Shown here piece after piece: positions 2,820 through 28,308 of a DNA stretch of 34,644 nt. The position numbers were made by a program, and so were the translations under genes. Source of the DNA: Ignavibacteria bacterium (GTDB lineage: Bacteria > Bacteroidota > Ignavibacteria > Tepidaquicellales > OLB5); NCBI GenBank assembly GCA_030835025.1, contig JAUQWS010000114.1:1-34644 (forward strand), written 5' to 3'. Positions within the stretch are counted from its first letter, which is position 1. Every line of letters begins with the position of its first letter. The notes below the pieces were generated by a model, which was not told the origin of the DNA, ran no database searches, and worked only from the letters and a program-made list of their open reading frames with translations.

Positions 2820-2864
2820 TTGTTTTCTCCTTTAGTTTATTATTTGTTGGTCCTTATTTACTAT

Positions 2865-4814: not shown

Positions 4815-4850
4815 CAAATTTATCTTTCTAAGAATTTGCTTTTTAATTAT

Positions 4851-13074: not shown

Positions 13075-16029
13075 TTATGGTTTGATTATCAAGCTGATAC
13101 CCTGTTTGCCGTCCATAAGCACATTGAACGGTTTATCAGTTTTCACGTGGATGTAATGATCCGTCTTTTCTTCAGGGTTTATGTTTTTCAAAAAACCCCA
13201 ATCGATGAAATCTCTTCCGTTGTTCTGGTGGACTGTAAGATAACCAACATTCATCGAAGTAATATTATGGAAGAAGTGAGAGCCAAGCGAAGCATCAACT
13301 TTGAAATCATCCAGGTCAGTTTCTACAATTATTTTCGCATTCGATATCTGCGCCCACTGAACCGGAATACCAAGCCAGCGGTCGCGGGTTCCCCACCTGC
13401 CCGGCCCGATCAGAATATAGGCACGGTTAAGCTGGCGCATTTTACTGTTCAGCAGTTCTATTTCGTGCGCCATTTCCCTGGTTTCGGTCTTGTTGAATTT
13501 CTCAGGGTCTACATAAATAATATCCGAGATATTTTCCAGTTTTCCGTTACCCATCCCCCTTTCTGTATACAGCACAAGATCAGTTTTATCGATATCCTGC
13601 AGGTCAATAGAAAAATATTCTGAACTTCTTATCAGGGGCTTTAACTGGAGAATATAGAAACCGGGATTTTTTTCATCAAGGTTCGCGGCAAATTCAATTT
13701 CAACAGGCAATCCCATTGAACTTTCGATAATTTCAAGCAAACGGCTAAGTAATTTTGCCAAAGGAAATCCGTCATACTTAAGCACACCGGCAAAGTTAAT
13801 CACTCTTGGCCCCGGGAGGTTAAGACCTGCCTTAAGCATATTGTTCTGCGTATCCCAAACAGAAGCGACCTCATTAAGTACACCGAGTTTTTCGGCATCC
13901 GAAATATCCACCCTTTTAAGTGTGATATCTTCTCCTTCTGCAAGATCAGATATATTCCTCTTCATATCTATTCCATACAAAAAGGACTGTGTATCACGAA
14001 GCTGGGATTCAGGGTCAATAATATCAATTTTAGGAAATTTCGGTGAGAACCTGTAAGCCTTTTCTGCATCTATGACATATTTGCCAAGCCCAACAGCCGC
14101 AATGCAAATGCCGTCTTCAGGCTTGAAACGGGATATCGGATAAAAATTATATGATTGTGCTACACCCGAAACATGCGGAAAGAAAACATCACCAAAATTA
14201 CTGCCTGCAATTTCCTGTATTACCACAGCCATTCTTTCATCATCCAGCCTGTAATTGATCGCATCAAAATAACTGCGCGCATGTTTAGAATAAATTGATG
14301 CGTAAACCATTTTAATTGCATCGGTCAGGTTTCGCAGTCTTTCTTCAAGTGACGGGTGATTATTGGGGATCAGGAAAGTCTGGTATATCCCCGAAAATGA
14401 CTCCGATATTGAATCCTCGTACATCCCCGAAGACCTTACGGCAAGTGGGACTTTTACTTTCTTAAGGTATATTCTCAGCTTCCGCATAAGCTCCTCTGAG
14501 AGCTCACACTCAATGAATATCTTCTTTACTTCTTCATGGTCGTTATCAAGATGGATCTTGCCGAGCGAGTTTGCATCTATAAAATTGTCAAATTCTTCAA
14601 CACCAATAATTGCTGTACGCGGTATTCTGATAGCTGCTCCTTCGATACCTTCAAACAGTTCTTTGGATTGCAGCAAGGTGTTAATGAATGCAATTCCCCT
14701 TCCTTTGCCTCCAAACGAACCGCCGGCAAGTCTTAAAATCAGATTCTCTTCGTCAAGGAACCTCGCATTGAAATCAACAACTCCCCCGCGCGAAACCGAT
14801 GTTTCCACGTTTTTGGTAACATTGATAATATAATTCCTTATCGCATCTGCATTGGGAAAATCAGTAACCTTAAGCTGTTCCAGATGCTCTGCTATCTGAA
14901 TTTCTCCCCTTGCCATCAGCCAGGCAGAAAAGTGATTTCTGCTGCCGTGGTAAAGCACAGAGTCCGAAGGCACAACCCTCAGCAGGTCCTTGAATTCAAC
15001 TATTGAAGCTGCCCTGCTGATCTCATCTCCGTCTTCATCCCTGAAGATGAATTCACCGAAACCAAGATTGTTCAGCACGAAATCCGTCAAATCCTCAGAA
15101 AGTGTTTCGGAGTTCTTGTTGATAAAAGAAACACCAAGGTTCTTTGCAACATCTTCATATGCGCTTTCAGACGACTGCAGCAGGTATGGCAGGTCGCTTT
15201 CTTCGTTCTTGATCCTTTTATAAAGTTTTATCCCTGCTTCATCATCTATCTGTCCCCCGAGCGGGAATTTAATATCAGATATTACACACAGCAGGTAATC
15301 TTTGTATTTCTCATATATCTCTACAGCTTCTTCGTAGCTCACTGCCATAAGCACTTTGGGCCTGGCGCGCATTCTTAGGACCTTTTTAACGCCGTCAAGG
15401 TTATCTCGGGTAATCAGGCTTTGAGTTTGTTTAATGATCTCGTTGTAAAGTATAGGGAGATAGCGCGAGTAATATCTTATGGAATTTTCGACAAGCAGAA
15501 TAACCCTTACAAGACCCACTTTCGTATCATTTGTAACATTCATCTTGTCTTCAAAATACTTTACAATGGCAAGAAAAACTTTGGTATCCCTGTTCCAGAC
15601 AAATACTTTCTCGAAAACATCTATCTTGTCACGCATCTGGTTCAAAAAGGCTATATCACTGTTATCATACAGGAGCAGGAAAACAGGCAGCTCCGGTTTT
15701 ATTCTCCGTATAAGAGATGCAAGTTCAAGCGGTGTAAGGTTCTGGTTGCGCATTGTGATTATGGCAAAATCAAAATACTTCTTGCTGAGAAGCTGCTCAA
15801 CCTCATCTTTATCTGACGCATTGGTTATCCTTGGAACATTTGAGAGGTCAAGATTGTAATACTCCCCGAAAATTCTTTCATTAAGCTTTTCTTCTTCTTC
15901 AAGTATGAATGCATCGTAAAGGGATGTGACAAGCAGTATCTCACGAACATGGAATTGCGCAAGATCGTGATAGATCTCGTTATCACTCTTGTGCTTTTTG
16001 AATATCGATTTAAGTTCTTCTTTCAGCAT
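13075..16029 (-). CDS. PEP/pyruvate-binding domain protein with two N-terminal receiver-like domains
   Basis: The 984-residue protein starts with a degenerate receiver-like fold (about 28-160). A better REC domain follows (170-320) with an acidic E181 (LLVENS), the probable phospho-acceptor D252 (ISDIKFP), S286/S287 and K305. Residues 434-800 form a PPDK_N/PEP-synthase ATP-binding domain: GGSFGGKGRGIAF (436-448), VRSSGMYEDS (531-540), YILQLKPLIRS (792-802). The phosphohistidine domain and PEP-binding barrel of PEP synthase are missing. Instead residues 835-984 form a different C-terminal module with GPGRWGTR (875-882) and SLGSHFF (914-920). A paralogous core lies at 24252-27476. The gene starts 22 bp downstream of the NamZ-like gene and is probably in its operon. 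I infer an ATP-dependent phosphotransfer or regulatory role, not PEP synthesis. Confidence 0.85.
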   Translation of the reverse strand: MLKEELKSIFKKHKSDNEIYHDLAQFHVREILLVTSLYDAFILEEEEKLNERIFGEYYNLDLSNVPRITNASDKDEVEQLLSKKYFDFAIITMRNQNLTPLELASLIRRIKPELPVFLLLYDNSDIAFLNQMRDKIDVFEKVFVWNRDTKVFLAIVKYFEDKMNVTNDTKVGLVRVILLVENSIRYYSRYLPILYNEIIKQTQSLITRDNLDGVKKVLRMRARPKVLMAVSYEEAVEIYEKYKDYLLCVISDIKFPLGGQIDDEAGIKLYKRIKNEESDLPYLLQSSESAYEDVAKNLGVSFINKNSETLSEDLTDFVLNNLGFGEFIFRDEDGDEISRAASIVEFKDLLRVVPSDSVLYHGSRNHFSAWLMARGEIQIAEHLEQLKVTDFPNADAIRNYIINVTKNVETSVSRGGVVDFNARFLDEENLILRLAGGSFGGKGRGIAFINTLLQSKELFEGIEGAAIRIPRTAIIGVEEFDNFIDANSLGKIHLDNDHEEVKKIFIECELSEELMRKLRIYLKKVKVPLAVRSSGMYEDSISESFSGIYQTFLIPNNHPSLEERLRNLTDAIKMVYASIYSKHARSYFDAINYRLDDERMAVVIQEIAGSNFGDVFFPHVSGVAQSYNFYPISRFKPEDGICIAAVGLGKYVIDAEKAYRFSPKFPKIDIIDPESQLRDTQSFLYGIDMKRNISDLAEGEDITLKRVDISDAEKLGVLNEVASVWDTQNNMLKAGLNLPGPRVINFAGVLKYDGFPLAKLLSRLLEIIESSMGLPVEIEFAANLDEKNPGFYILQLKPLIRSSEYFSIDLQDIDKTDLVLYTERGMGNGKLENISDIIYVDPEKFNKTETREMAHEIELLNSKMRQLNRAYILIGPGRWGTRDRWLGIPVQWAQISNAKIIVETDLDDFKVDASLGSHFFHNITSMNVGYLTVHQNNGRDFIDWGFLKNINPEEKTDHYIHVKTDKPFNVLMDGKQGISLIIKP

Positions 16030-16051
16030 GCTGCCTGCAATTTAAGTATTT

Positions 16052-17290
16052 CTATTTATAAAGCAAATATTGATTACGCACAGATTTGAAAGTTTCCAGC
16101 TCATCCTGCCATTCTGCAATAATTTCTATCATAGATAAGCCTCCTAAAATGCCTTTTCTCAGACGGTCTGTCCCGGCAAGTTTATCAATGAAATTGTCTT
16201 TATTCAGCCTGAATTCAGGGCAGAGCTTTCTTAACGCCGCAAGGATGGCAATTCCCGCTTTGACCGGTTCAAACTTCCTCTTATCTGTAACGCTGATGAA
16301 AATACCATTACACTCCTGATTAAAAAACTTCGGGGGATACGCCGAGATCTTTTCTGAAGGGGTGAAAGTAACTGGTTTGAAAATTACCCCTGAAAGTCCG
16401 TATGAATTAAGCTCATCAGCCAAAGCCTGCTTATCAACCCATGGCGCACCCAAATATTCAAACGGTTTATCTGTCCCTCTTCCCTCGGAAACATTTGTTC
16501 CCTCAAGGAAACAGGAGGCAGAATAGCAAACTGCGGTCGATGGATAAAACATGCTTGGTGAAGGCTTCACCCAAAGTAGCCCTAGGGAATCATAATCCAT
16601 GTTCCTTTGGTAACCCTGCATTCTGCTTACCTCAAGCGTGCACTTGCCGCCGTACACCACAGAGTTAAGGTACAGAGCAAGCTCTCCGCAAGTCATTCCG
16701 TAAACTGCCGGTGCCGGTATAGTTCCAACAAATGAGGTGAAGCCTTCAGAAAGAACATAGCCGTCAACGTAATCCGGATCAATGACCACCGGTCTGTCAC
16801 ATACTATCAGCTTCACATTATTTTCAGAGCAGGCTTCGATAAGGTAATATAGTGTCGAAGTATATGTATAGAACCTTGCACCAACATCCTGGATATCATA
16901 AACAACTGCATCAATTCCGGCAAGATCTGATGATGTTGGTTTGTTCTTCCCGCCGTAAAGTGATATAATTGGTTTACCTGATTTTTCATCAACATCTGAA
17001 TAATTTTCATCACCCCTAATACCGTGTTCAGGAGAGAATATCTTAGCAACGTTGATCCCTTTGGAGATCAAAGCGTCAACAATATGAGTTCCATCCCGTG
17101 TAATTCCGGTTTGGTTGGTCAGAACGGCAATATTCAAACCTTTTAATACATCAGCCCTGTTCAGGAGATACTCATTGCCAAGTGTGAATTCTGTAACAGC
17201 TTTGTTAGCTTCCGCTGAGCCGAACATGCTCCGTGACGGAAAAAAGAGCAGTAGGCAAATCAGAATGGATTTAATCATCAAAAGCGGCAT
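16052..17290 (-). CDS. namZ: DUF1343 family protein, probable exo-beta-N-acetylmuramidase (NamZ-like)
   Basis: The 412-residue protein has an N-terminal signal sequence (MIKSILICLLLFFPSRS, with ATG choices at 17290 and 17278). A typical DUF1343 body follows: VLTNQTGITRDG, FSPEHGIRGD (85-94), YDIQDVGARFYTY (131-143), VCDRP, and PAPAVYGMTCGE (192-203). DUF1343 founded glycoside hydrolase family GH171, whose characterised member NamZ removes terminal N-acetylmuramic acid from peptidoglycan fragments; the role here follows from the family. The location would be periplasmic or secreted. A 28-bp perfect palindrome ends 15 bp before the start codon. The 22-bp spacing to the next gene suggests co-transcription with the PEP/pyruvate-binding protein, but no link in function is evident. 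Confidence 0.87.
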   Translation of the reverse strand: MPLLMIKSILICLLLFFPSRSMFGSAEANKAVTEFTLGNEYLLNRADVLKGLNIAVLTNQTGITRDGTHIVDALISKGINVAKIFSPEHGIRGDENYSDVDEKSGKPIISLYGGKNKPTSSDLAGIDAVVYDIQDVGARFYTYTSTLYYLIEACSENNVKLIVCDRPVVIDPDYVDGYVLSEGFTSFVGTIPAPAVYGMTCGELALYLNSVVYGGKCTLEVSRMQGYQRNMDYDSLGLLWVKPSPSMFYPSTAVCYSASCFLEGTNVSEGRGTDKPFEYLGAPWVDKQALADELNSYGLSGVIFKPVTFTPSEKISAYPPKFFNQECNGIFISVTDKRKFEPVKAGIAILAALRKLCPEFRLNKDNFIDKLAGTDRLRKGILGGLSMIEIIAEWQDELETFKSVRNQYLLYK

Positions 17291-17304
17291 TGATATTATT
17301 GTCC

Positions 17305-17332
17305 CATTTATCCATAAATTTATGGATAAATG
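17305..17332. promoter_or_regulatory. 28-bp perfect palindrome upstream of the NamZ-like gene
   Basis: CATTTATCCATA-AATT-TATGGATAAATG is perfectly self-complementary over 28 bp and ends 15 bp before the start codon at 17290. As DNA it would suit a dimeric regulator. As RNA it would form a 12-bp hairpin immediately before the coding region, covering the position where a ribosome site would lie. Confidence 0.6.
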
Positions 17333-17368
17333 AATTCAAATAATATTGATTTGCGGGGATAAACTGCG

Positions 17369-17597
17369 ATGACTGTTTGGAGTGAAAAAGGGAACCGGCT
17401 GTTTGGTGGATATCCCGTATCAGCCGGTCAAAAACTAACTAATTGGAGTCAAGGGTTAGCACTTCTTGTTCACGCGGATGAACTTCTGTTAAAAGTTCTG
17501 AGTCTGCATATTCATAAGGGTAAGTTACTTCTTATCAATTAGGGAGAAACTCAAAAAATCACAAGGGGGTGTCTATTTAGATGTTCATTTCATCTAA
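17369..17597. other. Hairpin-rich intergenic stretch, function unknown
   Basis: The 445-bp gap 17333-17777 holds no convincing gene. It contains three dyads: ACCGGCTG (17394-17401) with CAGCCGGT (17421-17428); GTTCA with TGAAC around 17469-17484; and TTAGATG (17577-17583) with CATCTAA (17591-17597). A 57-codon frame (17369-17542) is present but has unconvincing composition and no clear ribosome site. An untranslated structured RNA is possible. The remainder, up to the rhodanese-like gene, shows nothing I recognise. Confidence 0.3.
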
Positions 17598-17777
17598 CGC
17601 TACAAAGTTAATATATGAAGTCCCTCTTACATATAGTACATTATATGAAAGGCTTGTAGTCGAAATAATTACATTCGGGTATGAGCTTGTAGTGCCCATT
17701 TTTGCGTTCTAAGTTGAATTTTCAGGAAATTTAAGTTAAACTTGTCCGGGGGCAATCAAAAATCCTCCGTTTACGGT

Positions 17778-18206
17778 ATGAAAATACTCCTCAATAAAAT
17801 GAAATTTAAACTCTTCTGTTTGCTTTCCGTAATCCTGATATTGGTCTCATCATGTGATTACTTATTCCCTCCTTTCAGCGGTGAAAGGATTACGGTTGAG
17901 GAAGCTTATAAATATATAAGCAAAAACGAAAAGTCAGAAGATCTTATGATAATAGACGTAAGAAATGCTGCAAGATACAACGAAGGTTATATCCCCGGAG
18001 CTGTAAATTATGATTATGATTCAACCGGTTTTCCAACCTGGATAGAGAAACTCGATAGGTCCAAAGTCTATATAGTTTATTCCGAAGATGAACGAAAGAG
18101 CTTCAATACACTTGAGTTGATGCTTGAACTTAATTTCGGGAATGCTCACGCCATCAAAGGCGGGCTTCAGCAATGGAAGAAAATGGGTTACCCTCTCAGA
18201 AAATAA
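17778..18206 (+). CDS. Rhodanese-like lipoprotein lacking the catalytic Cys
   Basis: From the ATG at 17778 the product has 142 residues; an ATG at 17799 is equally plausible and the TTG at 17742 is unlikely. A lipoprotein signal ends in LVSSC (C26), so the protein is probably membrane-anchored. Residues 36-142 form a rhodanese fold: ITVEEAYKYI, MIIDVRNAARYNEGYIPGAVN, and IKGGLQQWKKMGYPL. The active-site loop reads IVYSEDERKS where active enzymes have a Cys (IVYCxxGxRS), so residue S102 replaces the nucleophile. Sulfur transfer is therefore unlikely; a binding or sensing role is inferred. It lies 108 bp upstream of the histidine kinase gene on the same strand and could be co-transcribed. Confidence 0.75.
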   Translation: MKILLNKMKFKLFCLLSVILILVSSCDYLFPPFSGERITVEEAYKYISKNEKSEDLMIIDVRNAARYNEGYIPGAVNYDYDSTGFPTWIEKLDRSKVYIVYSEDERKSFNTLELMLELNFGNAHAIKGGLQQWKKMGYPLRK

Positions 18207-18314
18207 CGATATTCGGTCCGTAAACCTGTTTAAATAGTTCCTGATCTGTAATAGCGTTTTAGGATTATATTTTCATTTCGTAATTGATATATTCAGGCAA
18301 ACGCAGGGGCAAAA

Positions 18315-19397
18315 ATGGAGTATAAATCACTCGGTTTGAATAAAGCAGTGATTTACATGATCGGCGGTGCTTTAGTAACTGTGATCGGACTGATTGACCA
18401 CACTACCGGCGAAGAACTTTCTTTTTCAATATTTTACCTCATACCGATAGTATATGTAACCTGGTTTGGAAAAAGACCCTTTGGATATTTTTTTGCACTG
18501 CTGGGTGCAGCAACATGGTTTTATGTTGATTCTCTGAGCGCTCCCCAATTTTCATTCCCGGCAATTCCTTACTGGAATGCTGTTGTAAGGCTAGGATTCT
18601 TCCTTATCGTGGTGTATCTTACCGGGGAACTTAATGATTTTAAGGTGAATCTGGTCAAAAGAATAGATGAGAGAACAAAGGATCTGCTTAATGAGATTGA
18701 AGATCATAAACGCTCAAAAGAAGAGCTGATGCAGAAGAGCGAATTGCTGAGAAAACTCACCGGCAGGATTGACAGGATAAAAGAGGAAGAGAATACAAAG
18801 ATTGCCCGCGAAATCCATGACGAGCTTGGACAATATCTTACTGCGATCAACCTGGAAATAAACTGGATAAAGAAGAAGTATTCCGGCGTTCCTGATTTAA
18901 CCGCAAGATCAACAAACTTGAGCGAAATGGTGAATGAAACCCTCAAGTCAGTGCGGAAGATCTCTTCGGAATTAAGGCCAAGACTGCTTGATCAGCTTGG
19001 TGTTTTTCCTGCAATCGAAAGTTCGTTAAGGGACTTGCAGAAACGGACCGGTATAAAGTGCCGGTTTGATATGGAAGCTGATGATGTGCAGCTTCCTGCA
19101 AACGTTTCGACATCATTCTACAGGATCTTTCAGGAAGCAATTACAAATGCCGCAAGACACTCGAAGGCAAAGAGCATAAATGTGAGGATATTTTTGAACG
19201 GCAGCAAAATGCTTCACATGACAATTAAGGATAACGGGACGGGTTTTGTACTTCAGGAAAATCAGAACGGAGTTGATAAGTCTCTCGGCTTAATCGGAAT
19301 GAAAGAAAGAGCACTCATAATCGGAGGTAATCTGGAGATCGATTCTGCCCCGGGCAAGGGCACAGAGATCAAGTTGAGTATTCCTGTTCAAAATTGA
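18315..19397 (+). CDS. Membrane sensor histidine kinase, NarL-partner (HisKA_3) type
   Basis: The 360-residue protein begins with about four membrane segments (12-27, 37-50, 56-70, 86-104) and only very short loops, so it probably senses within or at the membrane. A coiled-coil linker (115-160) leads to the HisKA_3 dimerisation domain with the phospho-acceptor H168 (REIHDELGQYL). The HATPase domain follows: N278 in EAITNAARHSKA, the G1 box DNGTGF (306-311), and GLIGMKERA. This is the DegS/LiaS/NarX-type class that pairs with LuxR-type regulators, and the response-regulator gene follows 15 bp later. The signal is unknown. The start ATG is preceded by a weak GCAGGGGC. Confidence 0.9.
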   Translation: MEYKSLGLNKAVIYMIGGALVTVIGLIDHTTGEELSFSIFYLIPIVYVTWFGKRPFGYFFALLGAATWFYVDSLSAPQFSFPAIPYWNAVVRLGFFLIVVYLTGELNDFKVNLVKRIDERTKDLLNEIEDHKRSKEELMQKSELLRKLTGRIDRIKEEENTKIAREIHDELGQYLTAINLEINWIKKKYSGVPDLTARSTNLSEMVNETLKSVRKISSELRPRLLDQLGVFPAIESSLRDLQKRTGIKCRFDMEADDVQLPANVSTSFYRIFQEAITNAARHSKAKSINVRIFLNGSKMLHMTIKDNGTGFVLQENQNGVDKSLGLIGMKERALIIGGNLEIDSAPGKGTEIKLSIPVQN

Positions 19398-19412
19398 TAA
19401 ACTAATTCGCAT

Positions 19413-20054
19413 ATGATCAAAATTCTTATAGCAGACGACCACTCAGTCGTAAGAAGGGGCATTAAACAGATCCTCTCTGAAGAATCAGATTTTGAAGTCC
19501 TGGGTGAGGCTTCAAGTACTGATGAAGTATTTGAGCAGCTTGATGACCAGGATTGGGATATTCTGGTACTTGATATAACTATGCCCGGCAAAAGCGGACT
19601 GGATTGCCTTCTGGAGGTAAGGAAGAAGAAACCGGAAATGAAAGTGCTGATACTTTCAATGCATCCTGAAGAAGAAATTGCCATTACTGCACTTAAAACG
19701 GGTGCCTCCGGTTACCTGAACAAGGACAGCGCACCTGAAGAACTTATCAAAGCTATCAGGAAGGTCCATGAAGGAGGCAGGTATATCAGCTCGACACTTG
19801 CCGAGTCAATTCTGTTTTCAAGTGAAAAAGGCTCAGGCCAGGAACCGCACGAGACACTTTCTGAAAGGGAATTCCAGGTCTTCTGTCAGCTTTCATCCGG
19901 AAAAACATTGACTGAAATCGCCGAAGAGCTCTCACTGAGTATTAAAACAATAAGTACATACCGCTCAAGGATACTTGAGAAGATGAATCTCAAAACAAAT
20001 GTCGATTTGACCCACTACGCAATAAAACACAAGCTTGTATTGAACAAAGCGTGA
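19413..20054 (+). CDS. NarL/FixJ-family response regulator
   Basis: The 213-residue protein has an N-terminal receiver domain with acidic D8/D9 (IADDHS), phospho-acceptor D54 (LVLDITMPG), S82 and K104 (GYLNKDS). A LuxR-type helix-turn-helix follows at 146-205 (LSEREFQVFCQLSSGKTLTE, then SIKTISTYRSRILEKMNLK). It starts 15 bp after the kinase gene, forming a clear two-component pair. The last codons overlap the terminator stem at 20046-20077. Targets are unknown. Confidence 0.93.
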   Translation: MIKILIADDHSVVRRGIKQILSEESDFEVLGEASSTDEVFEQLDDQDWDILVLDITMPGKSGLDCLLEVRKKKPEMKVLILSMHPEEEIAITALKTGASGYLNKDSAPEELIKAIRKVHEGGRYISSTLAESILFSSEKGSGQEPHETLSEREFQVFCQLSSGKTLTEIAEELSLSIKTISTYRSRILEKMNLKTNVDLTHYAIKHKLVLNKA

Positions 20055-20077
20055 GCAGTTCATCATGCTCACGCTTT
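20046..20077. terminator. Terminator hairpin overlapping the response-regulator stop codon
   Basis: AAAGCGTGAGCA (20046-20057), an 8-base loop and TGCTCACGCTTT (20066-20077) form a perfect 12-bp stem. The TGA of the response regulator lies inside the left arm. The U-run is short. It stands between convergent genes and may end transcription from both sides. Confidence 0.7.
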
Positions 20078-20102
20078 AGGTGCCGCTGTTTTACAAAGTC
20101 TT

Positions 20103-21557
20103 CTACTGCATTATGTAGCTTTTATGAATTGTCCTTACTTTACCGTTTATATTGATTCTAAGCACTGCTGTTACATTTGTACCTTTCGGCGGCAATCCCT
20201 GTTTATCCCAGATGATACTCAATTGATATGACTTCATTATCTGGTCGTAAATGCTTCTGTAAATTGTTTCAAGCATCTGCGCATCCGATGCCCAATAATA
20301 AAATCCGCCTGTTCTTTGTGCAATTTCCAGCAGATCACTTTCGGCTTTGCTGTTAAGTCCAAGCGGTACTGAATGAAACTTCGGGATTATCAGTCCAACA
20401 GTATAGACTTTCACTCCTTTTTCTTCACTCAGCCTGTAGATGGAGTCCTTGGTTATCATACCTGATGAATTCTCTTCACCATCAGTAAATGCAATTACTG
20501 TTTTTATTATCGAAGGATTTGATTCATATGTCCTGTCAAGCAGTGCTTCGTACACTGATTTGTAAACTGCAGTCCCTTCTCTTGGGAATGAGCCGTTTTT
20601 AATTGCACTCATCATTAATTTCCTGTCCAGTGTAAATCCCTGCACTACATTTATCACTTTCCCGAATTTGATGAACTTTGCAAGGTATCTCTGGTCCATA
20701 TTATTCACAAAGTACGAAACGGCTTTCTCCATCTGGATGATCTGCTCGGTCTTAACTGCAAGCTTGTCAAAACTGCCGTTGAACATGCTGGGGCTGTAAT
20801 CCATTGTGAATGTAAAGGCTATTTTTCTCTGATTATCTATCGGTATTAATCTCGGAGTGCCGCTCACTGAATCGACACTGGTTTCAGTCTTCCATTTTAA
20901 AGTCGCACTGATATCTTCTTCAGCAATGTTTGTGATAGGCTCTCCAAGAGTATCTCTGACTGAAAGATCCATTTGCAGAGTATCACTGCTGCGCTTAAGG
21001 ATCGAAGCATTCAGGAAGGTTTCTGTTTTCTCCTGCGGTATAGGTCCGCGCTGCAGTCCGCTTACTCTGAACTCAACTCTTCTGTTCCTGGCGCGGTTTT
21101 CGTCATTTAAGTTATCCGCTGCAGGTTCGGAAAAACCTTTTGCAGAAATCTCCATCCTTTCTCCATTAATGCCTTTTGTCATAAGGTACGCCTTCACCGA
21201 TTCTGCCCTCTTTTGAGAGAGTTCCAGATTGAATCTCTCACTGCCGATATTATCTGTGTGCCCTGTTATCACTATTTTTGAATCAGGGTTCTCAGTAAGT
21301 ACTGCCGCAAGCCCGTTTAGAACAGTTATGCCTTCTTCGGTTAGTTCCGGACTTCCGAACTCGAAATAAACTGCATTCCCTCTGTTCAGCGTATCAATAT
21401 ACTGCTGAACCATGTTATCGGAGCCATATGCAATTCTTATGATGGAAATGAGTGAAACCAAGAGTATTCCGATTATCAGAATTGTCAAGTAAAGATAGCC
21501 TTTTTCGGATATTCCCGGGATTTGGGTATGTGTAGAGTTTTTTTCCTGCTTTTTCAT
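20103..21557 (-). CDS. Membrane-anchored OmpA-VWA fusion protein
   Basis: The 484-residue protein has one membrane segment (about 20-43). An OmpA/MotB-type peptidoglycan-binding domain follows (60-165: VITGHTDNIGSERFNLELSQ, ENRARNRRVEF). Beyond a beta-rich linker lies a von Willebrand factor A domain (245-440) with an intact MIDAS site: D253/S255/S257 in DYSPS, T329 in GTAVY, D359 in FTDGEEN. It most likely sits in the inner membrane with the OmpA and VWA parts in the periplasm. VWA domains bind protein partners through a metal ion; the partner is unknown. A strong AGGAGG precedes the ATG. The gene is divergent from the WYL regulator and convergent with the response regulator. Confidence 0.88.
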   Translation of the reverse strand: MKKQEKNSTHTQIPGISEKGYLYLTILIIGILLVSLISIIRIAYGSDNMVQQYIDTLNRGNAVYFEFGSPELTEEGITVLNGLAAVLTENPDSKIVITGHTDNIGSERFNLELSQKRAESVKAYLMTKGINGERMEISAKGFSEPAADNLNDENRARNRRVEFRVSGLQRGPIPQEKTETFLNASILKRSSDTLQMDLSVRDTLGEPITNIAEEDISATLKWKTETSVDSVSGTPRLIPIDNQRKIAFTFTMDYSPSMFNGSFDKLAVKTEQIIQMEKAVSYFVNNMDQRYLAKFIKFGKVINVVQGFTLDRKLMMSAIKNGSFPREGTAVYKSVYEALLDRTYESNPSIIKTVIAFTDGEENSSGMITKDSIYRLSEEKGVKVYTVGLIIPKFHSVPLGLNSKAESDLLEIAQRTGGFYYWASDAQMLETIYRSIYDQIMKSYQLSIIWDKQGLPPKGTNVTAVLRININGKVRTIHKSYIMQ

Positions 21558-21612
21558 TTCTGCCTCCTGTTAATTTTATATACTAAATTAACCAGCCTGA
21601 AATTCAGAATCG

Positions 21613-21627
21613 TATCACCACGTGATA
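21613..21627. promoter_or_regulatory. Operator-like dyad TATCAC-N3-GTGATA
   Basis: A perfect 6-3-6 inverted repeat lies in the 180-bp divergent region between the OmpA-VWA gene and the WYL regulator gene. Local autoregulatory operators are common for such regulators; the assignment is inferred from position and symmetry alone. Confidence 0.4.
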
Positions 21628-21737
21628 TTAATTGAAGTTTTTCTAACACTGGATACTAACTGAAATGCCCTATGAAATTTACCGTATTTACCTTAAGATT
21701 ATGCATTTAAACTTCAAGCGAAAATTGCTAATTTGGT

Positions 21738-22604
21738 ATGATGCAGGATTCAAGAAATAAGCTTAAAAGACAGCTCGAAATACTCGGTATCATCCTTTCA
21801 CAGGACTATTCAGGGCTCATCAGGACATTTGACCTGGCAGAAATGTTCAGGGTCGAAGAGCTCACCATAATGCGTGACCTCCAGCAACTTAGGTCTTTCG
21901 GTATTGACATTCACTCCACAAAAAAAGAGGGCATCAGTATTGAAGGCAAAATTGAAGATGAGAAGCTGAGAGAGTTCATTCAGCAGTATTCCTCATTATG
22001 CATCGCTCCATCGTTTGTGGATAAATCCACTTCTCTTCTTGTAAGCAGGCTTGGCGAAAAATCGCTTGCAAACCTTGTTGTCCTGCAGCTTTCCATTGAG
22101 CAGAACAGGGTGGTACAGATAGATTATGAAAAAGAGAACGGAATGCTTGATTTTGCCAGGGAGATCTGCCCCATATTGATATTCCAGCGCGAAAATTACT
22201 GGCGGGTGCTTGCTTCGTTCAGCAATTCGCTGCGGCAGTTCCATCTTAACAAGATCCTCGAAGCAAGGACAACATATAAATCGTTTAACCCGGTTCAGAA
22301 CGAAAGGCTTGAGGACGTATTCAGGTACACATGGAAAAGCTGGATAGGCGAGAACAAGTACGATGTGAAGCTCCATTTTACCAAGCTTTGGGCTGAAAGA
22401 ATTAAGCCCAAACAGCTTATGGATATTGAAAAATTCACAGAGGATGCAGATGGTTCTGTAACTTACGAGACTACTGTTAACTCCCTGGATGAAATTGCCT
22501 CCTGGATAGTAAGCCGCGGAAAAGGAGTGATAGTTCTGGAACCCGCTGAGCTTAAGGAAAAAGTTCTGAATCTTGCAAAAGAAGCACTCAGTAATTACGA
22601 TTAA
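21738..22604 (+). CDS. WYL-domain transcriptional regulator with DeoR-type winged helix
   Basis: The 288-residue protein has an N-terminal winged HTH (8-70: RTFDLAEMFRVEELTIMRDL, then LRSFGIDI). A WYL-type ligand-binding domain follows (about 120-200: VVQIDYEKENG, NYWRVLASFSNSLRQFHLNKI) with the C-terminal extension found in this family. Such proteins sense nucleotides or other small ligands and act as repressors or activators. Two tandem ATGs open the frame; no ribosome site is clear. It is divergent from the OmpA-VWA gene and lies 244 bp upstream of glutamate dehydrogenase on the same strand. A role in controlling either neighbour is possible but not shown. Confidence 0.85.
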   Translation: MMQDSRNKLKRQLEILGIILSQDYSGLIRTFDLAEMFRVEELTIMRDLQQLRSFGIDIHSTKKEGISIEGKIEDEKLREFIQQYSSLCIAPSFVDKSTSLLVSRLGEKSLANLVVLQLSIEQNRVVQIDYEKENGMLDFAREICPILIFQRENYWRVLASFSNSLRQFHLNKILEARTTYKSFNPVQNERLEDVFRYTWKSWIGENKYDVKLHFTKLWAERIKPKQLMDIEKFTEDADGSVTYETTVNSLDEIASWIVSRGKGVIVLEPAELKEKVLNLAKEALSNYD

Positions 22605-22848
22605 GTTCTGAAGATCTAAGCAGAAAAACCGGATTTTCAGGCTCAAAAACCACCCGATGAAACAAAGTTAACTGATGAAATAATATGACAATTATCAATT
22701 TATTTTAATTAAAAAAGTGTGATATTTGTATAAGCAGCAAAATGTTACATTCCGCAAAAACACATATTTATAATCAATTAATTTCTGGAAAACGTGAAAT
22801 ATGCCCAGACAAAGAAGGCAGTTCACACAAAAACAATAGAGGTGTAAG

Positions 22849-24135
22849 ATGAGTGACAAGAATTTCAATGCTTTTCAGATGGCACAAACCCAGTTTGATA
22901 AAGTTGCTGATATACTTTCTCTTGATGATGCAACACGCCACCTGTTACGCGAACCTTTGCGCGAATATCATTTCAGCATCCCGGTAAAGATGGATGATGG
23001 AACAACAAAAATATTCAAAGGATTCAGAGTACAGCATAACGATGCGTTCGGCCCAAGCAAAGGCGGAATAAGATTCCATCCGATGGAAACTATCGATACG
23101 GTACGCGCTCTTGCAATGTGGATGACATGGAAATGCGCAGTTGTAGGTATTCCGCTTGGCGGCGGAAAAGGCGGAGTGATCTGCGACCCCCACAACCTGA
23201 GCATGCGCGAGCAGGAAAGCATCTGCCGCGGCTGGGTTAGACAGCTTGCAAAAAATGTCGGTCCCATTAATGATGTCCCCGCTCCGGACGTAATGACCAA
23301 TGCACAGCATATGCTGTGGATGCTTGATGAATTCGAAGTTATACACGGAGGTAAACACCCCGGATTTATTACCGGCAAACCTGTCGGCATGGGCGGCTCT
23401 CTTGGAAGAACAGAAGCTACCGGCTACGGAGTTGTTTATACGCTCAGAGAAGCATGCAAGAAGTTAGGTATTAAGATCGAAGAAACAACTGCAGCATTCC
23501 AGGGATTCGGAAATGTTTCGCAGTATGCATTGCAGCTTTATACAAAGCTGGGCGGAAAAGTCATTTGTGTATCTTGCTGGGATCAGAAGGACCAGACCTC
23601 TTATACATTTCAGAAAGAATCAGGTATTACTTTTGACGAGCTTATGAAAATAACCGATAAGTTCGGCGGAATAGACAAGGGCGAGGCTAAAAAGCTTGGA
23701 TATGAAATGCTTGACGGCGATGCATGGATAGAGCAGAAAGTTGATATACTTGTTCCGGCCGCTTTGGAAAACCAGGTTAGAGCAGATAATGCAGTTAAGA
23801 TAGCAGATACCGTTAAAGTTATGGCAGAAGGTGCCAACGGTCCTACAACCCCCGAAGCTGACAAAATCCTTAAAGATAAGGGAGTATTTGTAATACCGGA
23901 CTTCCTGGCAAATGCCGGCGGAGTGACTTGCAGCTACTTTGAACAAGTACAGTCCAATATGAACTATTTCTGGACAAAAGAAGAAGTGCTGAGCAAGCTT
24001 GATAACATAATGTCTTCAGCATTCCTTGCTGTATATGATACATCAGTAAAGAACAAGCTTTATATGAGAGATGCAGCTTATGTGATATCTATCAGCAGAG
24101 TGGCACACGCCTGCAAGGATAGAGGCTGGCTGTAA
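22849..24135 (+). CDS. gdhA: Glutamate dehydrogenase
   Basis: The 428-residue protein matches the hexameric Glu/Leu/Phe/Val dehydrogenase family over its full usual length. The dimerisation/catalytic domain contains FGPSKGGIRFHP, K95 (MTWKCA), catalytic K107 (GGGKGG) and D147 (PAPDVMT). The Rossmann domain has AFQGFGNVSQ (216-225), and ANAGGVTCSYFEQVQS comes near the end. The enzyme interconverts glutamate and 2-oxoglutarate plus ammonium. Cofactor preference (NAD or NADP) cannot be read safely here. A ribosome site (AGAGGTG) precedes the ATG. The 244-bp upstream gap suggests its own promoter, and a hairpin at 24157-24178 follows the stop, so the next gene is at most partly co-transcribed. 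Confidence 0.95.
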   Translation: MSDKNFNAFQMAQTQFDKVADILSLDDATRHLLREPLREYHFSIPVKMDDGTTKIFKGFRVQHNDAFGPSKGGIRFHPMETIDTVRALAMWMTWKCAVVGIPLGGGKGGVICDPHNLSMREQESICRGWVRQLAKNVGPINDVPAPDVMTNAQHMLWMLDEFEVIHGGKHPGFITGKPVGMGGSLGRTEATGYGVVYTLREACKKLGIKIEETTAAFQGFGNVSQYALQLYTKLGGKVICVSCWDQKDQTSYTFQKESGITFDELMKITDKFGGIDKGEAKKLGYEMLDGDAWIEQKVDILVPAALENQVRADNAVKIADTVKVMAEGANGPTTPEADKILKDKGVFVIPDFLANAGGVTCSYFEQVQSNMNYFWTKEEVLSKLDNIMSSAFLAVYDTSVKNKLYMRDAAYVISISRVAHACKDRGWL

Positions 24136-24156
24136 TTTCTGAATTCGTTTTGGCAG

Positions 24157-24178
24157 GATAGCCGCTTGTGCGGCTATC
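24157..24178 (+). terminator. Hairpin terminator after glutamate dehydrogenase
   Basis: GATAGCCGC (24157-24165), loop TTGT and GCGGCTATC (24170-24178) form a perfect 9-bp stem. It is followed by TTGTCTCATTTTTT, a delayed T-run. It lies 22 bp after the stop codon and may act as a terminator or attenuator before the next gene. Confidence 0.7.
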
Positions 24179-24251
24179 TTGTCTCATTTTTTCCGCTTAT
24201 ATTTCTATCCCTGCACCAATTGAAGAGTTTATTGAACAGGAGCCTAACAAC

Positions 24252-27200
24252 ATGCCCGATAGATTACAAACACCACCGATAGATAACATATTAAAGGAAC
24301 TTGAAGAAAGAGCCAAAGAGCTTAATTGCCTTTACAGGATCGAAGATGCACTCAATCATTCGGATATTACGCTGGAAGATGCCTTCAAAACTGTTGTTGA
24401 GGTCCTCCCCGGCGGGTGGCAGTATCCCGATTTAACCCGTGCAAAACTTGAATATAAAAAAAAGGTCTACAAGAACACAGAATTTGAAGAAACTATCTGG
24501 CAGCTCAAGTCCGATATTGTTATCAGTGATGAAGTTGTCGGCTCTATTTCGGTATATTACCTTAAGCCTACCCGCCAGTTTGATGAAGGTCCGTTCCTAA
24601 AGGAAGAAAGAAAACTGCTCAACACAATTTCTGAAAGACTCGGGCATTTTATTTTACATAAGGATTCCTTTGCTTTTATTTCAGAGCTGGATTCTATACG
24701 CGGCGTTGATTCAGGTGACGTAAAGCATAAGTGGCAGGTTGTCCTGGATATGCTGAGAAAGACCGATAAGCCGCTCTTCAATACAATTATCCGCAAACTG
24801 CTGCACAATCTCTGCTGGCAGGAAAATAAGGAGGCACAGGACCTGCTTAAGGAAGCCGGAGCCGAACCGGAAGACCTTGACGGGAATGAAGAGCTGTATG
24901 ATGAAAATAAGCCGCTCAAAAAGAAATCGCTTAATGATGAAGATTTTGTAGAGGCAGTTATCAGGCTTGCTGATGAGAACCTGAGCGACGATGAAATTCT
25001 GGGCAAACTTCAGAAATGGATATACGACGATAAGTGCAGCGGACTTGTTAAAGCTGTCGAAACGCTGGATACACCGCTGAACGAGATAGCAGAAGCTTTG
25101 CGCAAATACTATCCCCTGCTTTCAAACGGCGAGCTTTCACCTTCTATCGAAAAAGGACTGAAAGTATCACTGCTGCGCAGATTTTTCACCGATCAGACTG
25201 AGTTCATTTCAATTGCAAAAGAGTTTGTGGATATACACGATTTTTATGAGCTCACCGACAGGATAATACTGCCTACAAAAACATACGGTAAATTAGGCGG
25301 CAAAAGCGCTGGCATGTTTATTGCATCAAAGATAATCCAGAAGAAAGCCCAAAGCTATGAACCGTTCAGGAATATCAGGGTCCCAAAGACATGGTATATA
25401 CCTTCTGACGGAATAATGAATTTCCTCCATTACAATGAGCTTGAAGAGGTCATTGAACAGAAGTACAAGGAAATAGAAGAGATAAGAAGAGAATACCCGC
25501 ACATTGTCCAGCTCTTTAAGAATTCTGTATTTGCACCTGAATTCATCAGCGGAATATCTGTTGCTCTGGATGATTTCGGCGAAACTCCGCTTGTAGTAAG
25601 AAGCTCCAGCCTGCTTGAAGACAATTTTGGCGCAGCATTTTCGGGGAAATACAAGAGCCTCTTCCTTGCAAACCAGGGCAAGAAGAGCGAAAAAGTGGCA
25701 GCACTGTTGGACGCTATTTCGGAAGTATACGCTTCGACTTTTGGGCCTGACCCCATCGAATACCGCGCAGAGCGCAACCTGCTTGATTTCCGCGAAGAAA
25801 TGGGAATTATGATACAGGAAGTTGTAGGCACAAGAATTGGCAAATATTACATGCCTTCTTTTGCTGGTGTGGCCTTCAGTAATAATGAGTTCCGCTGGTC
25901 GCCAAGGATCAAGCGCGAAGACGGACTTGTGAGACTGGTTCCGGGCCTTGGTACACGCGCAGTTGACCGCTTAAGCGATGACTATCCCATACTGATTGCC
26001 CCGGGGCAGCCAAACCTGAGAGTGAATGTATCTCTTCACGAAAAGATGAGGTATACTCCTCAATTTATAGATGTGATCGATCTTGAAACAAACGAATTTG
26101 AATCACTGAAGCTTGAAGATGTTATTAAAGAATGCGGCGATGAATATCCCGAAATAAGAAGTCTGATATCTTTGGTAAAGGATGACAGGATAGTTCAGCC
26201 TTTCGGCCTGAATCCTGATTTTCATAATGACCATGTAATTGTAACTTTTGAAGGCCTAATCCAAAAAGGTCCCTTTGTACAGCAGATCAAAATGCTGCTT
26301 GATACCCTGCAGGAAGGAATGCGGAATCCCGTTGATATTGAATTTGCATCAAACGGAAACCAGTTCTACATACTGCAGTGCCGTTCACAAACACAATCCA
26401 AGGAGATCCAGCCGGATCCTATTCCGAGAGATATTCCGAGGAACAAGATAATATTTTCGGCAAACAAATATGTATCAAACGGAAAAGTGCCCGAGATATC
26501 ACACATTGTATATGTCGATCCCTCGAATTACAACAATATCTCATCACGCGAAGAACTCATAGAAGTCGGACGTGCTGTCAGCAAGCTGAATAAGATACTT
26601 CCAAAACGCAGGTTCATCCTCATGGGGCCGGGCAGATGGGGCAGCCGCGGCGATATCAAGCTTGGAGTGAATGTTACTTATTCGGATATCAACAATACTT
26701 CTATGCTCATTGAAATTGCAAAGCAGGTGGGTAATTACACACCTGACCTTTCATTCGGCACGCATTTCTTTCAGGATCTTGTTGAATCTTCCATTAGGTA
26801 TCTTCCGCTTTATCCCGATGAAGACGGTGCAGTGTTCAATGAAGTGTTCTTCAGGAAATCCGATAATATTCTGGGGCATTTGCTTCCGGAGTACAGGCAT
26901 CTTGAAGACACATTGAAAGTAATAGATGTAACCAATGTAACAGACGGATTGATACTCAGGGTTCTGGTCAATGCCGATATAGAAGAAGCGGTAGCGTTCA
27001 CAGATGAGCCTAAGCTTACTACTATACGCCAGCTAGATACTTCGGAATATGTGGAGTGGCAGCCAAGCAATTACTGGCAATGGCGTTACAAAATGGCAGA
27101 AAAAATGGCTTCAATTCTGCCGGCTGAAAAAGTTGGTGTTAAAGGAATGTATATTTTCGGCAGCTCTAAAAATGCCAATGCCGGCCCGGGTAGTGATATT

Positions 27201-27476
27201 GATTTGCTAATACACATTGACGATAAGAAAGCAGATACCGAGAAGCTGAATCTCTGGTTTGATGGGTGGAGCAAATGCTTAGCCGAGCTTAATTATCTAA
27301 AGACAGGTTACGTTTCGGACGGTTTGCTGGATCTGCATTACATCACAGATGAGGATATCGAAAAGAAGACAAGCTTTGCAAGCAAGATCGGTGCAATAAC
27401 TGACCCGGCTAAGCAGCTGAAGCTTGGAACAGATTCTGAACCCGCGGAGAGATCCAAACGGGTTCCTGCTAAATAA
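24252..27476 (+). CDS. GAF-PEP/pyruvate-binding-nucleotidyltransferase fusion protein
   Basis: I chose the ATG at 24252 (AGGAG nine bases upstream). The longer GTG start at 24168 lies inside the terminator hairpin. The 1074-residue product has a GAF-like sensory domain (10-135) and a helical, acidic region (155-300). A PPDK_N ATP-binding domain spans 340-715: GKLGGKSAGMF (346-356), VRSSSLLEDNFGAAFSG (449-465), FYILQCRSQT (705-714). The module shared with 13075-16029 follows (GPGRWGSR 792-799, SFGTHFF 834-840). A nucleotidyltransferase domain ends the protein (955-1040), with FGSS, then SDIDLLI (D982, D984) and a third acid near D1027. No phosphohistidine or PEP barrel is present. The GDH neighbour hints at nitrogen or carbon regulation (inference). 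Its last 8 bp overlap the convergent phosphoesterase gene. Confidence 0.85.
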   Translation: MPDRLQTPPIDNILKELEERAKELNCLYRIEDALNHSDITLEDAFKTVVEVLPGGWQYPDLTRAKLEYKKKVYKNTEFEETIWQLKSDIVISDEVVGSISVYYLKPTRQFDEGPFLKEERKLLNTISERLGHFILHKDSFAFISELDSIRGVDSGDVKHKWQVVLDMLRKTDKPLFNTIIRKLLHNLCWQENKEAQDLLKEAGAEPEDLDGNEELYDENKPLKKKSLNDEDFVEAVIRLADENLSDDEILGKLQKWIYDDKCSGLVKAVETLDTPLNEIAEALRKYYPLLSNGELSPSIEKGLKVSLLRRFFTDQTEFISIAKEFVDIHDFYELTDRIILPTKTYGKLGGKSAGMFIASKIIQKKAQSYEPFRNIRVPKTWYIPSDGIMNFLHYNELEEVIEQKYKEIEEIRREYPHIVQLFKNSVFAPEFISGISVALDDFGETPLVVRSSSLLEDNFGAAFSGKYKSLFLANQGKKSEKVAALLDAISEVYASTFGPDPIEYRAERNLLDFREEMGIMIQEVVGTRIGKYYMPSFAGVAFSNNEFRWSPRIKREDGLVRLVPGLGTRAVDRLSDDYPILIAPGQPNLRVNVSLHEKMRYTPQFIDVIDLETNEFESLKLEDVIKECGDEYPEIRSLISLVKDDRIVQPFGLNPDFHNDHVIVTFEGLIQKGPFVQQIKMLLDTLQEGMRNPVDIEFASNGNQFYILQCRSQTQSKEIQPDPIPRDIPRNKIIFSANKYVSNGKVPEISHIVYVDPSNYNNISSREELIEVGRAVSKLNKILPKRRFILMGPGRWGSRGDIKLGVNVTYSDINNTSMLIEIAKQVGNYTPDLSFGTHFFQDLVESSIRYLPLYPDEDGAVFNEVFFRKSDNILGHLLPEYRHLEDTLKVIDVTNVTDGLILRVLVNADIEEAVAFTDEPKLTTIRQLDTSEYVEWQPSNYWQWRYKMAEKMASILPAEKVGVKGMYIFGSSKNANAGPGSDIDLLIHIDDKKADTEKLNLWFDGWSKCLAELNYLKTGYVSDGLLDLHYITDEDIEKKTSFASKIGAITDPAKQLKLGTDSEPAERSKRVPAK

Positions 27477-28308
27477 GCTCCCTGGTAGAATCCTCAAGAT
27501 GCTCGGTATCAAATCTTACCACAGCAAGCCTGGAACCCTCGCATGCACCCGAAAAACAATAGGTGCTGCCTATTTTCTCACACCAGCTTCCCGATAGTTC
27601 TGATGACTCGTGGATATGCCCGTGCATTGTAACAAGCGGCTGGCGCTTTTCTATGAATTTCCTTATTGCAATACTTCCAATATGCTTTAATACAGGTTTG
27701 CCGTTGATATCTTTGCCGTCTATCAGGTCCAGTGCCGTATCACAGGGCGGCGAGTGGAAAAGGAAAATACTGTTTCGCAGGCTTTCTTCATCTTCTGTTA
27801 GCTTCTTCAGGTCATCTGAAATTGTAATATACTTTACAAGGTTCGGTGCTACGTCAAAAGTTCTTATTCCTTCTTCGGGTGAGACTGAATCGTGGGGCAC
27901 ATAGCGTGAAATATCATACTTCTCCCAGTCTTTCAGCAGAAAGGGCGTGGGCGGCACGTATGAATAACCGAATAACGATAGTCCGGCATACTCTGTTTTC
28001 TTTTCATTGGCATAAAAGATGAGCCCCTTTTCCTCTAGATCAATGAAGTAGTGCTCGGTTGCCCTCGGGTCGTCATTTCCGAGTATCAGAACGATCATAG
28101 GATATGCCTTACCTAAGGCAGATTTCAGTTTCACAAGAGAAGGTTCAAAAAAACCGTTAATAAATTCACCTGTATCTGATGCGTAGAAATTCGGAAGCAG
28201 GTCTCCCCCGAAAAATAAAGCGTCCGGACTTTCTGATTCAGTTATGCGGAATAATTTATCGTAATGGTCTTTGCTTCCGTGAATATCAGATACAAATATA
28301 GCGCGCAT
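27469..28308 (-). CDS. Calcineurin-like metallophosphoesterase
   Basis: The 279-residue protein carries the metallophosphoesterase motifs in order: SDIHG (D8, H10), GGDLL (D36), GNDD (N78, D79), a His in LFHSPP, and MHGHIHES. These ligate two metal ions in the calcineurin-like fold. There is no signal peptide, so it is probably cytoplasmic. It is the last gene of the minus-strand transporter cluster, 13 bp after the second ATPase gene. The substrate is unknown; phosphodiesters or nucleotides are usual for the family. Its last 8 bp overlap the end of the convergent 24252-27476 gene, leaving no room for a terminator. Confidence 0.88.
   Translation of the reverse strand: MRAIFVSDIHGSKDHYDKLFRITESESPDALFFGGDLLPNFYASDTGEFINGFFEPSLVKLKSALGKAYPMIVLILGNDDPRATEHYFIDLEEKGLIFYANEKKTEYAGLSLFGYSYVPPTPFLLKDWEKYDISRYVPHDSVSPEEGIRTFDVAPNLVKYITISDDLKKLTEDEESLRNSIFLFHSPPCDTALDLIDGKDINGKPVLKHIGSIAIRKFIEKRQPLVTMHGHIHESSELSGSWCEKIGSTYCFSGACEGSRLAVVRFDTEHLEDSTRELI

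What the first reader, a model, noticed from the sequence alone, without database searches (positions are those of the whole stretch)
13075..27476. Two paralogous PEP/pyruvate-binding proteins without the phosphohistidine or PEP domain
Proteins at 13075-16029 and 24252-27476 share a PPDK_N ATP-binding core and then a common C-terminal module marked by GPGRWG[ST]R and S[LF]G[ST]HFF, where PEP synthase would have its swivelling His domain. Their N-termini differ (REC-REC versus GAF plus helices). The invariant His and Arg of the new module may be the acceptor site of an uncharacterised phosphotransfer. I recall similar proteins being widespread in Bacteroidota but with no known function.
Basis: partly seen in the sequence, partly recalled or inferred. 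Interest (0 to 1): 0.72.

Follow-up and report, generated by a model that had tools for sequence, protein, structure and literature searches.

The report
Dikinase-like proteins paired with glutamate dehydrogenase
Two related proteins in this window join an intact ATP-using domain of the PEP-synthase kind to an undescribed domain with an unchanging histidine and to sensor domains; one of them occurs together with a particular glutamate dehydrogenase, so it is probably an unstudied regulator of nitrogen metabolism.

Summary
P0002 (13075-16029, minus strand) and P0001 (24252-27476, plus) share a PPDK_N ATP-grasp core plus a module of roughly 160-190 aa absent from Pfam, with no PEP-utiliser or PEP/pyruvate domain. 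ATP-site residues and the module's Arg and His are invariant (71 of 71 type-A sequences covering the module).

The main new result is a partnership. In 198 genomes of the phylum, the 19 with a P0001-type protein are the same 19 with a glutamate dehydrogenase (GDH) at least 65% identical to the one beside P0001; the next-best GDH is 52%. Among 80 loci from many phyla and archaea, 36 of 39 copies with a nucleotidyltransferase motif and enough flank have GDH within 3.2 kb on the same strand.

I propose signal-gated, PEP-synthase-derived kinases that control GDH after translation. The partnership is shown; the chemistry (phosphohistidine, nucleotidylylation, target residue) is inferred. Whether the module is a diverged swivel domain is unresolved. 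P0002 is not beside GDH here, and short Chloroflexota/Planctomycetota forms are mostly unlinked.

The parts
24252..27476 (+). P0001, type A, 1074 aa: GAF-like sensor - helical region - PPDK_N ATP-grasp - GRWG/HFF module - nucleotidyltransferase
24279..24698 (+). N-terminal GAF-like sensor (about residues 10-149)
   Evidence: weak Foldseek match to the NifA GAF domain (E 0.1); about 120 aa of it recur in other Bacteroidota proteins; 3 of 3 of these that I annotated are PAS-containing histidine kinases (a fourth was fetched and not annotated)
25290..26432 (+). PPDK_N ATP-grasp domain of P0001 (residues 347-727)
   Evidence: Pfam E 4.9e-58; K351, R450, D695 and E697 invariant in 72 of 72, Q709 in 71 of 71 with a letter there
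26442..27005 (+). GRWG/HFF module of P0001 (residues 731-918); R795 codon 26634-26636, H838 codon 26763-26765
   Evidence: among 32 module sequences only 3 chance-level Pfam matches, one member each, best E 0.056; R795, E821, H838 in 71 of 71; codons
27072..27419 (+). C-terminal Pol-beta nucleotidyltransferase of P0001 (residues 941-1056); D982, D984, D1027
   Evidence: NTP_transf_2 E 4.6e-7; of 72 type-A rows 45 have letters there: D982 43 of 45, D984 37 of 45, D1027 40 of 42; weak Foldseek MNT matches
22849..24135 (+). glutamate dehydrogenase, 428 aa, directly upstream of P0001 on the same strand
   Evidence: ELFV_dehydrog E 1.9e-72; NCBIfam GdhA_Arch is the best hit, below its curated cut-off; conserved partner
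13075..16029 (-). P0002, type B, 984 aa: pseudo-receiver - receiver - DUF5752-like region - PPDK_N ATP-grasp - GRWG/HFF module
   Evidence: DUF5752 match weak and below cut-off
15055..15516 (-). second receiver domain of P0002 with acceptor D252 (codon 15274-15276)
   Evidence: Response_reg E 9.2e-7, just below the curated cut-off; Asp kept in the 10 type-B rows printed; codon
15580..15948 (-). first receiver-like domain of P0002, no acceptor Asp
   Evidence: predicted secondary structure; alignment
13615..14715 (-). PPDK_N ATP-grasp domain of P0002 (residues 439-805)
   Evidence: Pfam E 1.6e-35
13084..13578 (-). GRWG/HFF module of P0002 (residues 818-982); R878 codon 13396-13398, H918 codon 13276-13278

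Best explanation
P0001 and P0002 belong to a family of signal-gated kinases that arose from the ATP-grasp half of PEP synthase/PPDK and lost the pyruvate/PEP half. The ATP-grasp domain uses ATP to phosphorylate the invariant histidine of the GRWG/HFF module (H838 in P0001, H918 in P0002). The sensor at the N-terminus (GAF-like in A, receiver in B) gates this. The output of type A is control of the glutamate dehydrogenase encoded beside it, by passing the phosphate on or by a phosphorylation-dependent change. The nucleotidyltransferase of type A would add a second covalent modification, in the way GlnE modifies glutamine synthetase. Shown here: anatomy, conservation, partnership with GDH. Inferred: phosphohistidine, GDH as target, direction of regulation, role of the nucleotidyltransferase.
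For: ATP site intact across the family and aligned to PEP synthase (hhalign probability 99.6) and, by Foldseek, to RPH/PEPS/PPDK structures. Module Arg, Glu and His invariant in 71 of 71. The same 19 of 198 genomes hold type A and the GDH clade (Fisher 7e-27 without phylogenetic correction). They co-occur even where they lie on different contigs (G109, G160, G196; also G047, at contig ends), and mixed families f4, f13 and f35 vary concordantly. GDH within 3.2 kb on the same strand: 36 of 39 type A with a nucleotidyltransferase motif, 23 of 23 type C, 7 of 9 type B; counting only GDH of at least 54% identity upstream: 35 of 39, 21 of 23, 4 of 9. Signalling inputs. Precedent: VadK, a truncated PPDK relative, autophosphorylates on a His and is proposed to modulate metabolic enzymes (PMC13400623, abstract and sections on autophosphorylation and model).
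Against: No profile homology between module and known swivel His domains; the tail of the longer alignment sets the GPGRWG loop, not HFF, against the PEPS His motif. Type-A proteins without the nucleotidyltransferase motif are next to GDH in only 9 of 23 cases, and the Chloroflexota/Planctomycetota genomes among them mostly hold only a 49-56% GDH. Three genomes with type-A loci (G198, G202, G208) show no GDH above 49%. P0002 is not beside GDH here, and the genome's second GDH lies on another contig, C59. In some type A the nucleotidyltransferase is degenerate or missing, so it is not needed for the core role. No contact between A and GDH was modelled. Co-occurrence can also arise from a shared pathway.
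Confidence: 0.5

Rival explanations
1. Allosteric subunit: the ATP-grasp core senses ATP/AMP without net chemistry and binds GDH as a regulatory scaffold; the conserved His and Arg are nucleotide-contact residues.
For: GDH pairing; sensor domains; module unrelated by profile to known phosphohistidine domains.
Against: The ATP-grasp residues expected for ATP chemistry are invariant, and the module His and Arg are invariant across A, B and C.
Confidence: 0.17
2. Metabolic dikinase: ATP-dependent activation of a small molecule in the same pathway as GDH (glutamate, 2-oxoglutarate or a derived amide), with GDH supplying substrate or removing product.
For: RPH and HpeHI are small-molecule dikinases with a related ATP-grasp domain (Foldseek; passages of PMC4844700 and PMC12167813).
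Against: The recognisable input domains are regulatory (GAF-like, receiver), not catalytic; apart from the module there is no further domain of the substrate-binding kind described for RPH; type C (about 580 aa) consists of core plus module only.
Confidence: 0.18
3. The nucleotidyltransferase is the output and GDH is only co-regulated: P0001 modifies some other protein, and GDH sits in the operon because both respond to nitrogen.
For: Catalytic carboxylates kept in most copies that have the domain; MNT-like fold, weakly, a family one of whose members is solved with an AMPylated partner (title of 7ae9).
Against: Pairing is with one GDH clade, also across contigs; Pfam finds no nucleotidyltransferase in 33 B and C proteins, yet B and C are mostly beside GDH genes.
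Confidence: 0.1
4. Diverged PEP synthase that still makes PEP.
For: PPDK_N domain; the NCBIfam hits include many PEP synthase models, all far below their cut-offs.
Against: No PEP/pyruvate domain and no PEP-utiliser His domain; the genome has a conventional PPDK.
Confidence: 0.02

Closest known systems
PEP synthase (PpsA) and PPDK
   Same: ATP-grasp domain with conserved K, R, E and Q-x-R residues.
   Different: No PEP-utiliser His domain, no PEP/pyruvate barrel; sensor domains added.
VadK (Rv1127c), PPDK-derived autophosphorylating kinase (PMC13400623)
   Same: Truncated PPDK relative with ATP-binding and His domains, proposed regulator of metabolic enzymes (abstract and two sections read).
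   Different: VadK's catalytic His was found by overlay on solved PPDK structures; here the module is not recognisable as that domain by profile, and sensor and nucleotidyltransferase domains are added.
Rifampin phosphotransferase and HpeHI small-molecule dikinases (PMC4844700, PMC12167813; passages seen)
   Same: Among the best structural matches of the models (5hv1-5hv6, 9goj).
   Different: They have a small-molecule domain and a swivel domain with the T/S-x-x-G-G-x-x-x-H signature; the module's S-x-G-[ST]-H-F-F does not fit it.
Enzyme I-Ntr (PtsP)
   Same: GAF sensor joined to a phosphotransfer protein in nitrogen control (recalled; the start of one related abstract was seen in a listing, PMC4848567).
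   Different: EI-Ntr takes phosphate from PEP and has the standard His domain (recalled); here ATP would be the donor.
GlnE/GlnD regulators of nitrogen assimilation
   Same: Pol-beta nucleotidyltransferase in a sensor-bearing protein tied to an ammonia-assimilation enzyme (GlnE/GlnD architecture recalled).
   Different: No GlnE family match in the own genome; the partner is GDH, not glutamine synthetase or PII.

Membership tests
PEP synthase / PPDK | PPDK_N ATP-grasp domain | tested here: met
PEP synthase / PPDK | PEP-utiliser phosphohistidine domain (PF00391) | tested here: not met
   no Pfam match up to E 10 or in 32 module sequences; hhalign E 0.26-0.88 against swivel profiles
PEP synthase / PPDK | C-terminal PEP/pyruvate-binding barrel | tested here: not met
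   no Pfam match; the module is followed by the C-terminus (P0002) or a nucleotidyltransferase (P0001)
dikinase-type swivel-His enzymes (wider sense) | swivel domain fold carrying the catalytic His | tested here: inconclusive
   predicted strand/helix order looks compatible in both models (the comparison rests on recall), no coordinates were at hand, Foldseek gave no aligned ranges, the second aligner was unavailable, and profiles show no homology
regulatory PPDK-derived kinases like VadK | ATP-dependent autophosphorylation on His | not testable with these tools
   needs biochemistry; only the invariance of H838/H918 is known
Pol-beta nucleotidyltransferases | G-S ... D-x-D and third Asp | tested here: met
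   (above the Pfam cut-off) and for P0001 and most type A that have the domain; degenerate or missing in others
GlnE-type adenylyltransferase | GlnE family profile | tested here: not met
   no match at E 0.001 in the own genome, which includes P0001

The most novel reading that the evidence does not exclude
This is an unrecognised covalent control system for glutamate dehydrogenase found in bacteria and archaea: sensor-gated proteins that combine PEP-synthase-type phosphotransfer through a new histidine-bearing domain with a GlnE-like nucleotidyltransferase in one chain, dedicated to one clade of GDH.
Probability: 0.33. Interest if true: 0.85.

Novelty: new variant of a known kind. Interest (0 to 1): 0.62.

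Why it matters
Glutamate dehydrogenase sits at the carbon-nitrogen branch point. A family of at least 572 loci across many phyla, one branch of which has GDH as its steady partner, and with no function in print that my searches showed, turns an anonymous 'PEP/pyruvate-binding protein' annotation into a testable regulator. If the module is a true phosphohistidine carrier, it would be a highly diverged or new one.

Tried and rejected
Homology of the module to the standard swivel His domain: not found at sequence level (hhalign). Profile hit of the module to VAMP7 chains (best E 0.0016): judged chance, a 66-position match to a eukaryotic membrane-trafficking protein. GDH-type-A gene fusion in L124: rejected, GDH lies in another frame. 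Viral carriers: none confirmed in one scan. Type A as a stand-in for PII: rejected; PII is present in 14 of 19 type-A genomes and in 17 of the 31 other genomes given, although not found in the own genome. B. thetaiotaomicron locus numbers that I recalled as relatives were wrong (BT1971 is a catalase). Clade-specific GDH positions were found, but the comparison set was mostly another GDH class, so no site is claimed. The distance correlation between A and GDH (r 0.53, 43 pairs) has no control and is not used. Defence-system reading: only the nucleotidyltransferase stretch of P0001 matches a candidate family, weakly (best E 6.8e-6), and P0002 none. Neighbours of the unlinked short type A: no recurrent gene that explains them among the loci clustered.
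Full report
Check of the observation. Both open frames exist. The first, P0002, lies on the minus strand; the plus frame holds many stops. P0001 and P0002 align over 501 residues at 28% identity, E 2e-50, from the ATP-grasp domain through the GPGRWG and HFF motifs. Pfam finds PPDK_N in both and no PEP-utiliser or PEP-binding barrel, up to E 10. The own genome has a separate conventional PPDK and a PtsI-like protein, so these two are extra.

Family and types. Among 198 genomes of the phylum, 19 have a type-A protein (P0001-like; at least 43% identity over some 750 residues or more) and 26 have full-length type B (P0002-like, two receiver-type domains), some with two copies. A third type, C, is about 580 aa, core and module only; in the 8 cases of the phylum set it overlaps the start of the type-A gene by a few bases. 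By record title they come from Ignavibacteria, Bacteroidales, Acidobacteria, Calditrichota, Zixibacteria, Planctomycetota, Myxococcota, Spirochaetes, Chloroflexota, Syntrophomonadaceae, Kiritimatiellae, Thermoplasmata, Methanomassiliicoccales and others, most of them metagenome-assembled genomes. One viral scan confirmed no relative.

Active-site evidence. In 72 type-A sequences G349, G350, K351, R450, E456, D457, D695 and E697 are invariant, and Q709 and R711 are kept in 71 of 71 that have a letter there. In the module G792, G794, R795, W796, G797, G805, E821, S834, G836, H838, F839 and F840 are kept in 71 of 71; the 72nd is truncated. The same Arg and His hold in 54 of 54 A, B and C proteins of the phylum set and in the 32 module sequences of A4. 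hhalign aligns the core with PEP synthase at probability 99.6. PDB titles name K22A and R337A mutants of PPDK; that these correspond to K351 and R711 is my reading from general knowledge.

The module. Of 32 members scanned, three match one Pfam family each at chance level, best E 0.056; the sequence profile against the PDB gives only a doubtful VAMP7 hit and one to a plasmepsin. Against PEP-utiliser/swivel domains, hhalign gives E 0.26 to 0.88. In the longer alignment the tail sets GPGRWG opposite the PEPS GGRTSHA motif and stops before HFF. AlphaFold models (mean pLDDT 86.1 and 86.2) give for the module strand - long strand or strand pair - helix - strand (before GPGRWG) - short helix - strand - [S-x-G-S/T-H-F-F] - helix - strand - ... 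- strands. By recall this order resembles the swivel domain with the His at the start of a helix; [quoted passage not shown] Coordinates and aligned ranges were not available, so I leave the homology open.

Inputs. About 120 residues at the N-terminus of P0001 recur in other Bacteroidota proteins. Four of these regions were fetched; three proteins were annotated and all three are PAS-containing sensor histidine kinases, the fourth was left out. Foldseek gives a weak NifA GAF match (E 0.1). In type B the second receiver keeps its acceptor Asp in the 10 rows shown, and the first has none. In 3 of the 39 loci compared (L082, L083, L084) a gene of one cluster, annotated in L082 as a PAS-HisKA_3 kinase, follows type B, with a LuxR-type response regulator close by.

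The partner, locally. The gene directly upstream of P0001, 33 bases before the longer reading of the ORF, is glutamate dehydrogenase. In 39 loci (the window and 38 phylum regions chosen because they hold the family), GDH lies within 2.6 kb on the same strand for 12 of 17 A, 24 of 29 B (21 upstream, 3 downstream) and 6 of 8 C. The 12 misses are P0002 itself, four other B (L089, L094, L098, L105), A and C of L070 (where the order is GDH-B-C-A), A and C of L073 (cut by a contig end), and A of L079, L101 and L102. In the 80 loci, 112 of 126 family proteins have 500 aa or more; 18 of these have neither a near GDH nor 2.5 kb upstream and were set aside. Of the rest, GDH (any tblastn hit over 100 aa) lies within 3.2 kb on the same strand for 36 of 39 A with a nucleotidyltransferase motif, 23 of 23 C, 7 of 9 B and 9 of 23 A without the motif. 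With GDH of at least 54% identity and upstream only, the figures are 35 of 39, 21 of 23, 4 of 9 and 9 of 23. The motif is a regular expression: at least one short protein (L158, 777 aa) is probably put in the first group wrongly.

The partner, genome-wide. The 19 genomes with type A are exactly the 19 with a GDH at least 65% identical to the window's; the next best in the 198 is 52%. Fisher p is 7e-27 without correction for kinship. Families f4, f13 and f35 contain genomes with both and with neither. In G109, G160 and G196 the two genes are on different contigs, as in G047, where contig ends may part them. Fourteen of these 19 genomes also have PII, as do 17 of 31 others, so type A does not replace PII in general; the own genome shows no PII or GlnE (assembly 95% complete).

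Genomes where the local link failed. I searched the 35 genomes behind the loci in which no same-strand near GDH was seen. Seventeen have a GDH at 62% or more somewhere (two of these within the same locus, L147 and L162), and one more (G232) has a 65% fragment of 200 aa. The other 17 are three from the A set with at most 49% (G198, G202, G208; gaps or mis-binning are possible) and 14 Planctomycetota/Chloroflexota-type genomes with short type A, whose best GDH is 49-56% (43% in G229). So the strict pairing belongs to the sensor- and nucleotidyltransferase-bearing branch; the short branch may have another role or another GDH clade.

Interpretation. The parts read as sensor, ATP-using engine, His-bearing module and, in type A, a nucleotidyltransferase, placed next to an enzyme that such a system would be expected to control. 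VadK is the nearest precedent: a truncated PPDK relative shown to autophosphorylate on His and proposed to modulate methylcitrate-cycle enzymes (PMC13400623, abstract and two sections read). I give 0.5 to post-translational control of GDH with ATP-driven phosphorylation of the module, and 0.33 to the bolder reading in which the nucleotidyltransferase also modifies GDH. Searches of the paper library showed no description of the motifs (no paper) or, in the listings seen, of the pairing; the library holds open-licence papers only, and searches listed only part of their hits.

Noticed in passing
window 6634-10944: 1436-aa fused acyl-CoA dehydratase activase: BadF-type ATPase region (two matched stretches) plus DUF2229.
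   Followed up: no
window 18315-20054: HisKA_3 sensor kinase and LuxR-type response regulator between P0002 and P0001; regulators of the same broad sequence cluster sit near type B genes in several relatives.
   Followed up: partly
window 16052-17290: NamZ exo-N-acetylmuramidase 23 bases upstream of P0002 on the same strand, where most relatives have GDH.
   Followed up: no
window 27469-28308: Metallophosphoesterase converging on and overlapping the end of P0001; a gene of the same cluster follows type A in 9 of the 39 loci compared. A phosphatase partner is conceivable.
   Followed up: partly
L069, L070, L073, L075, L076, L077, L103: Histidine biosynthesis genes (HisG, histidinol dehydrogenase, aminotransferase; annotated in L069) lie downstream of type A in these relatives.
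   Followed up: no
window 11375-12985, 1158-4817: Repeat proteins; the one at 11375-12985 has delta-60 repeats and a type IX secretion sorting domain, and the other two cluster with it.
   Followed up: no
L177:9524-14220: Two short type-A genes in tandem in an Anaerolineae genome, without adjacent GDH.
   Followed up: no
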